This document shows, piece by piece, positions 19,411 through 52,256 of a DNA stretch of 64,000 nt. How positions within the stretch are numbered: position 1 is the first letter of the stretch; each line of letters opens with the position of its first letter. The position numbers were made by a program, and so were the translations under genes. Origin of the DNA: Ignavibacteria bacterium (GTDB lineage Bacteria > Bacteroidota > Ignavibacteria > Kapaibacteriales > UBA4661); contig JACVZY010000071.1 of assembly GCA_014654705.1 (NCBI GenBank), positions 1 through 64,000 on the forward strand, read 5' to 3'. The notes under the pieces were generated by a model. The model ran no database searches. It worked only from the letters and a program-made list of their open reading frames with translations, and was not told where the DNA came from.

Positions 19411-22400
19411 TTACTTCTTTGTTATCGGCACAATCTCAAAATCTTTACCCGAAAGCTGCCCAAACGGCGTTTGCTCCTTGCCTTTGAGTAACTGCCGTGT
19501 TAGTTCCGGCACTTGCTCCTCGACATAATTTTTCAACGCATTGACGGTAACTTTGCCTTTTTCGTTCTTCACCTCGCCGCCGAGCGCTTTGAGGAGTGTA
19601 TAAGAAAAAACACCGTGCTGAATGGATGTTACCTGATTGGCGGCTTGGTCGGAGGATGCCGATGCAATAACAGCGCTACCCGTCTTACGCGCCACGCCTT
19701 TGACGGATTTCGACTGCATAAAATCATCCAGCGCCGCACCGGACTGACAGGCATCAAAAAGTACCAACTGGCGCGCTGCCGGAACATTCGTCAGCAGAAC
19801 GCTCAGTTCCTTTGCTGATAGTCCACGTGCTTCCAAATCCTGCTCGTTTTTCACATCCTGCATGACGAGATAGAACGTTGACTGCTCGTCAGCCGCCACA
19901 ACTTTACCATGCCCGGCATAGAAAAACACAAACACATCCTGACGTTGCGCGTTCGCAGTGATTTTTTTGAAGATTTCCTGCACTTTCTCTTTTTTCGCAT
20001 CCGCATCGTAGAGTTCGTACTTGAATACTTTGTCGTAGCCGCCTTGCGCAGCATTACCGACAATTGTTTTCAAAACGTCCTGCGCGTCGGTGCGAGCATA
20101 CGGCAGATTGTATTCTTTGTTGAGATAATCATTCACACCGATTGCAAAAACATGCAAATTTGTCGTCTGAACGGGAATATTGCACACGACGCTTACTTCA
20201 CTCGCGTTTGATTCGGTCTTGTCAGTGTTGATGGCAATAACTTTGAGGTCATTTTTGCCAGGCAGAAGCAGAATCGTGTAATCGCGCAGAATCGTAAAGC
20301 CTTGCGCAGAGGGCAAATTCCTGAATTCTTCAGGGAACAGCAATTTCCCATTTTGGAAAATACGGATTTCCGCAATCTGGGATCCTCTATCTTTTACGCC
20401 AACGGTTATGTTCACGCGCGGCGACGCCAGCGTATCGGCGGGGCGAGGAGCAAGAATTTCCACCAGAGGCGGCAATTTGAAATCCCGTGCAATGTCGGGG
20501 GCCATTTGCACACCGGCAACGGGATTAGCGATTTCCGCTGAAGCGGCTGCAAGGGCAGCTTCTTGCTGCTTTTTCAGTTCTGCTTGCCTGAGCGCAAGTG
20601 CTTCAGCATCTTGCTTGGCTTTTGCTTCCGCCGCAAGTCGGGCTTTCGCTTCGCTTTCCTGCTTCGCTTTCAAGTCTGCTTGCTGCTTGGCGAGTGCATC
20701 AGCTTCTTGTTTGGCTTTGGCTTCTGCCGCAAGACGTTCTTTCGTTTCGGCTTCTTGTTTTGCCTTTAGCTCTGCTTGCTGCTTGGCAAGCGCATCCTGA
20801 GCTGCTTTCTCTTTGGCTGCGGCTTGCTGTTTGGCGAGTGCTTCGGCATCTTGTTTGGCTTTAGCTTCCGCCGCAAGTCGGGCTTTCGCTTCGCTTTCCT
20901 GCTTTGCTTTCAAGTCTGCTTGCTGCTTGGCAAGCGCATCAGCTTCACGTTTAGCTTTTGCTTCGGCTTCGGCGCGAGCTTTTGTTTCAGCTTCTTGCTG
21001 TGCTTTGAGCGCAATCTGCTGTTTGGCAATTTCAGCGGCTTCACGCTTGGCTTCGGCTTCGGCTTCACGTTTGGCTTTTGCGGCACCTTCTTTGGCAGCT
21101 TTTTCTTGTTGTGCCTTCAAAGCCAGCGTTGCGGGCGACGTTGGGAAAATACGCGAAAGAAGTTTTGGCGAATAAAAACGCTCAAAGAACGCATCCAACT
21201 GTACCGGCTGACCGTCCACGACCCAATGCAAGAGCTTCGTGCCGTCTTCCGAACCGTCAAACTGCCCGTCGGGCGTTACAACGACCCAGTCGCCTCTGTC
21301 TAAGCCGACCAACGTCGCATTTTCTTTGCCTTCCACGGCATCCCACACAATGACCTTCGCATCAGCGCTGGCGCTGGCAAGGGTGCGATTGTTGGGATGG
21401 AACGACGTTGCCAGAACCCAGTTTGCATGACCTTTCAACGTTTTGGTTTCTTTGCCGCTCGCCACATCCCAGATTTTTACGTCGTCGTCGGTAGCACCGC
21501 TTGCGGCATACTTACCGTCATTGCTGAGAGAAACAGCCATGACCTCGCCTTTATGTCCCGTAAAGGTCTTTACTGCTTGTCCGGAGGCAACGTCCCATAC
21601 TTTCACTGTGCGGTCGGCGCTACCGGAAATAAGCTGCTTCCCGTTGGCAGAAAACGCAACGCTGTTGATAAGTTCGGTATGCCCCACGAGCGCCTTGAGT
21701 TCTTTGCCGCTTGCCACGTCCCATAGGCGCACACTGCGGTCGGAGGATGCCGTTGCAAGTGTTTTACCATCGGGACTAAAAGCAACAGAATAGACGCTTT
21801 TTTTATGCCCACGCAGTTTCTTGTCCAATTTGCCGCTTGCCACACTCCACAGGCTGACGACAGAATCAATCGCACCGCTTGCAATCATGCTGCCATCGGG
21901 CGAAATAGCCACTGCTTGAATCGGACTGTCGTCGGTGGTAATGGTCTTCGTGATTTTACTTGTTTCCACATTCCACACTACGATACTCTTATTGTCCAGC
22001 GACGTACCGCCTGCGGCAAGCGTCTTGCCATCGGCAGTATAGGACAGGCTTGCTACTTGAATAAGTGGTGCTTTGAGGTCGGCAGGCTCCGTACCTTTTT
22101 CCAAATCCCAAAGGCGAATGTTATTGCCGTCCTTGTCAGAGTGCGCCGTTGCGAGGTGATTACCCGTTTTATCGAAGGCAACAGCTTTAATAACTTTGCG
22201 ATAGCCGTTGAACTCGCTTGCATCGCGCCCTGTGGCTACGTCGTAGGTGCGCATAGCGCGGTCTGCGCCGCCCGTCGTTATCTTTGTGCCGTCAGGCGAA
22301 AAAGCGAAGCAGAGCACACGCGGCGAGTTCCCGATAAAGGTGCGAAGTTTCTTGCCGTTGAAAACATTCCACAGCGCTACGGTGCGGCGAATGTCCATGT

Positions 22401-26663: not shown

Positions 26664-28049
26664 ATGCCAGCAACGACATCTCTTCAAAATGGAGCACTGA
26701 ACCACGCTTCCCCCGCAATTTCTTCGCTCGAAGAAGTTCGTGAGCGCTTGCGTGAGGATTTCAGCGCCGTGCGTATTGCCACGATAGAACTCTGCCAGCC
26801 GCTTGCGATTGAAGATTACGTCATTCAGACCGCACCCTTTATGAGTCCACCGCGCTGGCATTTGGGGCATACATCGTGGTTTTTTGAAATGCTTCTGAAG
26901 CGCTTCGTACCAGAATACAAAATTTACTCCGATGCGTTTTTGTATTATTTCAATTCGTACTATGAAGGCTTCGGAGCGCGTATCAATCGCCAGAAGCGTG
27001 GTGCGGTCTCGCGTCCGACGGTTCAGGAAACGTTACTTTACCGCACACGCATTGACGGGCATTGCAAGATTTTGCTGGAACGCTTGCCGTATTTGGCAGA
27101 CGCACACGAGGCAGCACGGCTTTTTCGTTTGGGGCTTGAGCACGAAATGCAGCATCAGGAATTGTTAGTCTATGACATCAAACATCTTCTTGCCGATGAG
27201 TACAAACCGCTTCTGATGCAGGAAATGCCGAAAGCGCAGCTGGTGATAGAAGGCGAGGTTGAGTTTGCGGGTGGAGTTATTGAATTAGGTGCAAATGCCG
27301 ATGAACACGCGTTTGTGTGGGACAACGAAGCACCACGCCACAAAGTTTATGTGAACAATTTTGCTCTCGAAAAGCGCATGATTACCAATAGCGAGTTTCT
27401 TGAATTTATGCGGGATGGCGGCTACACAAATTACAAATGGTGGCTTTCGGCAGCATGGGACTGGGTGAAAGCGGAAAGCGTCGAAGCGCCCATGTATTGG
27501 GAAAAAGCAGGCACGGAAAGCGGCGCAGGATGGCACATCCGCGATTATCGGGGCTTGCGAAACGCAGACAATAATGAACCCGTGCAGCACATCAGCTATT
27601 ACGAAGCCTCAGCATTTGCAAAATGGCGTGGCAAACGTCTGCCCACCGAAGCAGAGTGGGAATATGCCTGCACAATCAACTCTGGAAACAGTATAAAACA
27701 AGCCTTTCCGTGGGGAAATAGCAGTTTGGCAGCACAGCATGGTAATTTTCTGGAAAATAATCTTTGGAGTGCTTCCGAAGCGGGCGCATTCCCCGCAGGC
27801 GCTACCGCAAGCGGTCTTTGGCAAATGACGGGCGACCTTTGGGAATGGACAAGCAGCGATTACGCGCCCTATCCGGGCTTCACGCCGCAATTCGACGAGT
27901 ACAACGACAAATGGTTTGTCAATCAAAAAGTGCTTCGTGGCGGCTCATTCGCTACGCCGCGAGCAAGTATGCGCTCCACGTACCGAAACTTTTTCCACCC
28001 CAACGAGCGCTGGATGGCTTCAGGCTTTCGATGCGCGAGAACATTGTGA
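26664..28049 (+). CDS. egtB: EgtB-like (ergothioneine biosynthesis type) DinB + FGE-sulfatase iron enzyme
   Basis: SPPRWHLGHTSWFFE and HEMQHQELL (candidate iron-binding triad); C-terminal formylglycine-generating-enzyme-like domain VLRGGSFATPRASMRSTYRNFF...GFRCART. Confidence 0.85.
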   Translation: MPATTSLQNGALNHASPAISSLEEVRERLREDFSAVRIATIELCQPLAIEDYVIQTAPFMSPPRWHLGHTSWFFEMLLKRFVPEYKIYSDAFLYYFNSYYEGFGARINRQKRGAVSRPTVQETLLYRTRIDGHCKILLERLPYLADAHEAARLFRLGLEHEMQHQELLVYDIKHLLADEYKPLLMQEMPKAQLVIEGEVEFAGGVIELGANADEHAFVWDNEAPRHKVYVNNFALEKRMITNSEFLEFMRDGGYTNYKWWLSAAWDWVKAESVEAPMYWEKAGTESGAGWHIRDYRGLRNADNNEPVQHISYYEASAFAKWRGKRLPTEAEWEYACTINSGNSIKQAFPWGNSSLAAQHGNFLENNLWSASEAGAFPAGATASGLWQMTGDLWEWTSSDYAPYPGFTPQFDEYNDKWFVNQKVLRGGSFATPRASMRSTYRNFFHPNERWMASGFRCARTL

Positions 28050-28117: not shown

Positions 28118-28193
28118 CCAAAAACATTGTGATACCAAAACATTGTGATACCAAAACATTGTGATACCAAAACATTGTGATACCGTTGTGATA
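28118..28193. repeat. 16-bp tandem repeat array (CCAAAACATTGTGATA), about 4.5 copies
   Basis: Copies at 28118-28134 (17 bp), 28135-28150, 28151-28166, 28167-28182, partial 28183-28193. Confidence 0.95.
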
Positions 28194-51091: not shown

Positions 51092-52256
51092 ATGAAACAC
51101 GTTGTTTTGACTGCTCTGGGCTTTGTTCTGTCTTTTGTCGTCAGCGTGGTGTGTAATCCTTTTGCAGCATGGCTTCTGCCTGTGGGGACGTATTTGGGGG
51201 ATTTTCGTGCGTTACTTCCAAATAGTAATATCTTTAACTCAGCGAGTATTCTTTTTGCTCCATCAATACTCTTTGCATACAGTTCCTTTGTTGGGCGGAT
51301 GTGTCGAGATGATAAGAAAATAAGAGTCTTCCAAGTCTATCTAGTAATGGGATGTTTTGCTGGATTCATCTATTTGATGGTAAGTTCTGTCAATAAAATA
51401 CGAGATGTGGTAAATTTTGCCTCTGGAGGATTTGGCTTATTGCCGTTAATCTTTCTTATGGGAACACTGGGAGTTATTGTTGGAATCTTGTATTTAGGTT
51501 TTATGGGAGGAGTATTACTAGGCAATGTTGGTGCGATTGTTTTGGGAAGTTATGCTGCATATGACAGGCAACATATCAACTATAAAGGTGTGGCAGCAGT
51601 ATTTTTAATATTTTTTTGCTTTTGTACTGTATTCACCTATGGGGTTTTTCCTTTGGCAGATGTTAAGAAAACTACTCTAAGCAGGAACACCACTGAAATG
51701 ATAGTACAGGACTGGACAATACATTCGGATAGCGTGCATCAATATGTGTACAGAATGGAACATATTAGAAATGGCTATATTGCCGAATATACAAAAGAAA
51801 CCTCGCCCGCTGAAAAACCTCTCCGATAGCGTGCATCAATATGTGTACAGAATGGAACATATTAGAAATGGCTATATTGCCGAATATACAAAAGAAACCT
51901 CGCCCGCTGAAAAACCTCTCCGATTATGCTATAAAGTGTACGATAAAAACAGGAAACTCATTGCTGAAAATTATTACTCTCCTCAGATATTGGAAAACTA
52001 TCTGCCAAATATCAAAAAACTAAGCAATCAAGACGTCCTAATGCAGATAGTGCGCTATCGCCGCAAAGAAATTTCTTTGAAAGACTTGGTTACGTGGGCA
52101 CATTGTGTCTTTTTTGATGGCAGTATTTCTGAAAAGAGTCCCAATGAGATTATATATGTCGTTGGACGTATTGGTCTTGTTGACGTACCAGAATTCGGAT
52201 TATCTGAAGAAATAATTCGTGAGTTAACCGCCAGGCTTACTGTCGGCACACAATAA
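51092..52256 (+). pseudogene. Multi-TM membrane protein gene frameshifted by a 97-bp tandem duplication (355 aa if one copy is removed)
   Basis: ORF from 51092 stops at 51829 exactly at the repeat junction; the continuing frame is open to 52256; 1165-97=1068 nt is a whole number of codons. Confidence 0.85.
51728..51921. repeat. Perfect 97-bp tandem duplication
   Basis: 51728-51824 and 51825-51921 identical (gatagcgtgcatcaatatg...gaaaaacctctcc), with a further gat at 51922-51924. Confidence 0.98.

What the first reader, a model, noticed from the sequence alone, without database searches (positions are those of the whole stretch)
51728..51921. Perfect 97-bp tandem duplication acting as a reversible OFF switch or fresh pseudogenisation
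Copies 51728-51824 and 51825-51921 are identical. 97 is not a multiple of 3, and the junction creates CGA TAG, ending the protein at 51829. Removing one copy joins both frames into a continuous 355-codon membrane-protein ORF (51092..52256). Such perfect tandem repeats are known to delete by slippage/recombination, so the locus could toggle. Alternatives are a sequencing or assembly artefact, or a just-occurred mutation in a culture or population.
Basis: seen in the sequence. Interest (0 to 1): 0.62.

Follow-up and report, generated by a model that had tools for sequence, protein, structure and literature searches.

The report
Fresh 97-bp duplication breaks a gene
A 97-base stretch of an accessory membrane-protein gene has been copied once, head to tail, which cuts the protein short; this is an ordinary kind of recent mutation that could revert by chance, and nothing shows it to be an evolved on/off switch.

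Summary
Two perfect 97-bp copies (51728-51824, 51825-51921; the period-97 match run is 100 bp, to 51924) lie inside an ORF and create a TAG at 51827-51829. Two relatives of the same genus have uninterrupted 372- and 377-aa homologs with one copy of the segment in register, so the two-copy state is derived and truncates the protein. What is lost is the end of a small domain (A) and all of a helical module (B), which elsewhere in the class are adjacent stand-alone genes. The ancestral copy was bordered by GAT...GAT (TCGGAT/TCCGAT), a slippage footprint. Assembly artefact is unlikely: contig ends share at most 55 bp, so the assembler's k was 55, and no similar duplication was found in 1.98 Mb of the genome. 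At k=55 the assembly cannot show whether single-copy cells coexist. Reversion by repeat deletion is plausible from E. coli, Burkholderia and pneumococcal precedents, but 'switch' is unsupported: the homologs lack the repeat, and every copy number above one that was tested is OFF. The gene is low-GC and patchily distributed. Verdict: a recent, potentially revertible loss-of-function allele of a known kind. Low interest.

The parts
51092..51829 (+). Truncated reading frame, 245 aa: N-terminal multi-pass membrane part plus the first part of domain A; ends at TAG 51827-51829 made by the repeat junction
   Evidence: Translation; hydrophobic segments about 1-33, 77-100, 106-153, 162-191; homologs
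51728..51824 (+). First copy of the 97-bp unit
   Evidence: Exact identity with 51825-51921
51825..51921 (+). Second copy of the 97-bp unit
   Evidence: Exact identity with the first copy
51725..51730 (+). Left microhomology TCGGAT; partner TCCGAT now at 51919-51924 (97 bp apart before the duplication)
   Evidence: Direct reading of sequence; exact match is GAT (3 bp), 5 of 6 for TCsGAT; 3 bp or more expected by chance in 5.6% of random 97-bp duplications
51919..51924 (+). Right microhomology TCCGAT
51825..52256 (+). Disconnected remainder of the gene in the second frame: the second copy of the segment, rest of domain A, all of module B, natural stop
   Evidence: Open frame; aligned with G007 and G005 homologs with 31 invariant columns
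52023..52238 (+). Module B, related to ~80-90-aa stand-alone proteins elsewhere in the class
   Evidence: Profile A4 of stand-alone B proteins finds it at E=2.7e-10; hhalign 98% probability

Best explanation
A recent spontaneous tandem duplication of 97 bp, made by slipped or template-switched replication between two GAT (TCGGAT/TCCGAT) sites 97 bp apart, has frameshifted a probably horizontally acquired, dispensable membrane-protein gene and stopped it after 245 of 355 codons. The product keeps its membrane helices but loses the end of soluble domain A and all of module B, so it is most likely non-functional. Because the copies are perfect and adjacent, precise loss of one copy by RecA-independent misalignment (or by recombination) should restore the gene at a low but notable rate. 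That makes it a revertible null allele, not an evolved phase-variation locus. Shown: the repeat, the stop, the single-copy homologs, the microhomology, and the absence of a comparable artefact in the part of the assembly examined. Inferred: mechanism of origin, acquisition, loss of function, revertibility.
For: Exact repeat with 3-bp border homology. G007 (L005:826-1944, 372 aa) and G005 (L006:796-1929, 377 aa) are uninterrupted with a single copy in register on both sides of the junction. Downstream frame intact with no further stops and conserved residues kept. Module B is also found as a stand-alone gene next to a stand-alone A gene elsewhere in the class. Gene GC 38.9% against 48.9% for the window, lowest 0.2% of 1165-bp stretches. 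Gene found in only two of the seven other same-genus genomes, and not next to the ABC-F gene in congeners. Contig tips share 51-55 bp and never more, implying k=55, so a 97/100-bp unmerged overlap is not expected. At k=55, 51 k-mers exist only in the two-copy allele and should have been in the reads. Literature: 101-bp tandem repeats delete at high frequency independently of RecA in E. coli (PMC8378479); de novo tandem repeats in penA reverted at 9.3e-7 to 3.6e-5 (PMC4169377).
Against: No raw reads were available, so neither copy number nor population mix was measured. Only two full-length homologs exist in the data (about 32% identical in the C-terminal part). The 100-bp match run is a suspiciously round number. 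3-bp microhomology is only mildly improbable by chance (5.6%). About two thirds of the genome was not scanned for similar duplications. Function of the intact protein is unknown, so loss of function is assumed.
Confidence: 0.75

Rival explanations
1. Assembly artefact: two contigs whose ends overlapped by about 100 bp were joined without merging (or merged on the 3-bp GAT border), so the true genome has one copy.
For: The match run is exactly 100 bp; the assembly is scaffolded, with N gaps of 10, 25 and 100; homologs have one copy.
Against: Contig termini share exactly 51-55 bp and never 56 or more, the mark of a de Bruijn graph with k=55, so unmerged overlaps should be about 55 bp. The N gaps seen are not flanked by unmerged overlaps (longest shared word 8-9 bp; the one exception lies in a natural 69-bp repeat array). 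No similar duplication elsewhere in 1.98 Mb. De Bruijn assemblers normally collapse, not invent, such repeats (general knowledge).
Confidence: 0.12
2. Evolved phase-variable locus: the 97-bp unit is a maintained switch, with cells moving back and forth between one copy (ON) and two copies (OFF).
For: Out-of-frame perfect tandem repeat; deletion of such repeats is efficient in bacteria (PMC8378479, PMC4169377); pneumococcal capsule genes do vary this way (Waite 2001 and 2003, cited in PMC4022640 and PMC4243769).
Against: The two homologs have no duplication there. Two, three and four copies all stop at the same codon, so the array cannot cycle between frames like simple-sequence repeats. Only a 3-bp border homology exists to re-create the repeat. 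No hairpin above chance. Reversibility and rate, which define phase variation (PMC11868660), are untested.
Confidence: 0.08
3. The shortened form is functional, or both halves are made as separate proteins (membrane part, and A+B part from an internal start), mimicking lineages where A and B are separate genes.
For: A and B exist as separate adjacent genes in other families of the class; an open 170-aa frame from ATG 51744 covers the second half.
Against: The stop falls inside domain A, not between domains; the 170-aa frame starts inside the repeat with out-of-frame residues; same-genus homologs keep the fusion.
Confidence: 0.05

Closest known systems
Spontaneous tandem duplications in pneumococcal capsule genes (Waite et al. 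2001, 2003, known here through citations in PMC4022640 and PMC4243769)
   Same: A de novo tandem duplication inside an ORF inactivates the gene; described there as spontaneous and reversible
   Different: There, duplication and reversion were observed in culture; here only one assembled allele is known, in an unrelated accessory gene, with no measured reversion
De novo tandem repeats in penA beta-lactamase (Yi et al. 2014, PMC4169377)
   [quoted passage not shown] adjacent copies
   Different: Those were in-frame and selected, changing substrate range; reversion 9.3e-7 to 3.6e-5 was measured. Here the duplication frameshifts and selection is unknown
E. [quoted passage not shown]
   Same: Repeat length almost the same, adjacent, identical
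   Different: Engineered plasmid assay; no measurement in this organism
Simple-sequence-repeat phase variation (contingency loci, PMC11868660)
   Same: Out-of-frame repeat alters a reading frame
   Different: Unit is 97 bp with two copies, two to four copies are all OFF, no hypermutable tract, not conserved

Membership tests
Recent microhomology-associated tandem duplication (loss-of-function allele) | Perfect adjacent copies | tested here: met
   97/97 identity, 100-bp match run
Recent microhomology-associated tandem duplication (loss-of-function allele) | Short direct repeat bordering the duplicated template | tested here: met
   GAT/GAT exact, TCGGAT/TCCGAT 5 of 6; chance of 3 bp or more 5.6%, so weak support
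Recent microhomology-associated tandem duplication (loss-of-function allele) | Ancestral single-copy reading frame in relatives | tested here: met
   G007 and G005 homologs, uninterrupted, one copy
Recent microhomology-associated tandem duplication (loss-of-function allele) | Present in the sequenced cells, not made by assembly | tested here: inconclusive
   Indirect: contig tips point to k=55, no sister cases in 1.98 Mb; reads not available
Phase variation (broad definition, PMC11868660) | Reversible switching shown | not testable with these tools
   No reads or cultures; only one allele known
Phase variation (broad definition, PMC11868660) | High switching frequency | not testable with these tools
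   OFF to ON plausible from literature; ON to OFF depends on a 3-bp microhomology
Phase variation by tandem repeat | Repeat kept across homologs (supporting, not strictly defining) | tested here: not met
   Neither homolog has the repeat
Assembly artefact (unmerged overlap) | Duplicated length matches the assembler's overlap length | tested here: not met
   Overlap signature is 55 bp, repeat is 97/100 bp

The most novel reading that the evidence does not exclude
The population from which this genome was assembled is a mixture of one-copy and two-copy cells, and this fusion of a membrane protein with the A and B modules is switched off and on by frequent duplication and precise deletion under changing selection. 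The k=55 assembly could not have shown the one-copy cells, so this is not excluded.
Probability: 0.06. Interest if true: 0.5.

Novelty: new member of a known kind. Interest (0 to 1): 0.2.

Why it matters
On its own it is a single recent loss-of-function allele. It is useful as a caught-in-the-act example of a microhomology-bordered tandem duplication. It also shows that k-mer assemblies with k shorter than the repeat cannot reveal whether such an allele is fixed or mixed, so original reads should be inspected before calling such genes either pseudogenes or switches.

Tried and rejected
Homologs of the N-terminal part: only self in 99 genomes. A genome-contig scan gave one Bacteroidia locus (L019) matching 54 residues of a transmembrane stretch; the protein there is of another build (by eye PspC-like) and was rejected as a homolog. 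The weak hit in G001 (L007) overlaps a longer ORF on the opposite strand and was rejected. Pfam, NCBIfam and PADLOC gave nothing above cut-off for the protein, its homologs or the A and B modules. No relative in viral contigs or plasmids. Solved structures: nothing meaningful. A single-sequence structure model of the C-terminal part was poor (pLDDT 45) and not used. Hairpin-driven duplication: the unit folds no better than shuffles, z -0.68. Synteny with the ABC-F gene in congeners: neighbours differ, so no clean empty site could be read.

Full report
Observation. The window holds two identical 97-bp copies at 51728-51824 and 51825-51921. The period-97 match run is 100 bases (51728-51924), so the exact breakpoint is uncertain by three bases, GAT. 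The frame that opens at 51092 runs 245 codons and stops at the TAG made by the junction. The second copy continues in another frame to the stop at 52256. With the two flanks joined at one copy, a single frame of 355 codons is open. The 31-mer that opens the unit is found nowhere else in the 5.72-Mb genome with up to two mismatches.

Is one copy the ancestral state? A search of the same genus with the C-terminal part finds G007 (372 aa, L005:826-1944) and G005 (377 aa, L006:796-1929), both uninterrupted. In alignment, both halves of the window gene fall on the same homolog columns through the repeated segment, then continue in register on each side. So one copy is ancestral and the truncation is not natural. 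The downstream half shares 31 invariant columns with the two homologs and has no other stop, so there is no sign of decay; the event is recent (inference).

What the gene is. The N-terminal part is hydrophobic with several membrane segments and has no match in 99 genomes of the order other than itself. The C-terminal part consists of two small modules. A profile of it finds, across the class, short stand-alone proteins related to its end. Reading those loci shows a recurrent pair of adjacent small genes: A (about 80 aa, consensus GKxGWxAxYIKxVD...QEIYDDxGxLVEIHEKYP) immediately followed by B (about 85 aa, ELVxWAENxMMExEFD...RxGLADVRxFGL), in L165, L167, L170, L172, L173 and L174. Profile comparison links B to the window's end (98% probability, E 2e-13; E 2.7e-10 in a genome search) and A more weakly to the repeated segment (90%, E 2e-6; the A profile finds G007 at 3e-8 but not the window within its cut-off). 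The window gene is thus most likely a membrane protein fused to A and B. The duplication lies inside A, so the truncated product loses the end of A and all of B. No curated family names A or B, and the function is unknown. The gene has 38.9% GC against 48.9% for the window, among the lowest 0.2% of stretches of its size, and no relative was found in five of the seven other genomes of the genus. It is an accessory, probably transferred gene, so its loss is likely tolerated (inference).

How the duplication arose. Before the event the segment was bordered by TCGGAT and TCCGAT, 97 bp apart. The exact border homology is GAT. Random 97-bp duplications in this window would show 3 bp or more in 5.6% of cases, so this is modest support for slippage or template switching at microhomology. 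Yi et al. (PMC4169377) describe the same geometry: a 3-8 bp direct repeat, with the template starting at the first and ending just before the second. The unit has no unusual hairpin.

Is it an artefact? The genome is a draft of 118 contigs with some N gaps. Comparing 76 contig termini, 41 share terminal sequence with another terminus over 51-55 bp, never more. That is the mark of a de Bruijn graph with k=55, where contigs stop one k-mer inside a repeat (inference from general knowledge of such assemblers). An unmerged overlap would then be about 55 bp, not 97 or 100. In 1.98 Mb examined there is no sister duplication, and the N gaps do not sit between unmerged overlaps, except one inside a natural repeat array. 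At k=55, 51 k-mers exist only in the two-copy allele, so reads with the junction should have existed, while the one-copy allele has no private k-mer at k=101 or below and gains two at k=103. Hence the assembly supports the presence of the duplication but cannot tell whether one-copy cells were also present, nor is the copy number of two secure.

Is it a switch? [quoted passage not shown] coli (PMC8378479). De novo tandem repeats in penA reverted at 9.3e-7 to 3.6e-5 (PMC4169377). Spontaneous, reversible duplications switch off pneumococcal capsule genes (Waite et al. 2001, 2003, as cited in PMC4022640 and PMC4243769). So return to one copy is likely possible. But phase variation requires frequent, reversible switching (PMC11868660). 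Here the repeat is not in the homologs, two to four copies all give the same stop, and renewed switching off would have to start again from a 3-bp homology. The better description is a revertible null allele.

Verdict. Confirmed observation; 'fresh pseudogenisation' supported; 'reversible switch' possible but unsupported; artefact unlikely but not excluded without reads. Known kind of event, low interest.

Noticed in passing
L165:1393-1926 (reverse-complement coordinates), L172:1247-1743; also L167, L170, L173, L174: An unnamed two-gene module, A (~80 aa) followed at once by B (~85 aa), recurs across families of the class and is fused to a membrane domain in the window and in two congeners; no Pfam or NCBIfam family covers either. 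Some copies lie near restriction/methylase-like, VapBC-like or DUF433-like genes (by eye).
   Followed up: partly
28121-28184: Four perfect tandem copies of a 16-bp unit (AAAACATTGTGATACC) downstream of an EgtB-like gene (26664-28049); the end of that gene holds a similar word (GAGAACATTGTGATGG).
   Followed up: partly
20473-21125: Imperfect 48/96-bp repeats, by eye coding on the minus strand for a charged, alanine-rich linker.
   Followed up: no
Contig termini of genome G000: 41 of 76 contig ends share 51-55 bp with other ends and never more, which points to the assembler's k (55) and to families of dispersed repeats at contig breaks.
   Followed up: yes
L103:412-809: Near-perfect 69-bp repeats (a multiple of 3) with a 100-N gap inside them, a natural repeat array that broke the assembly.
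   Followed up: no
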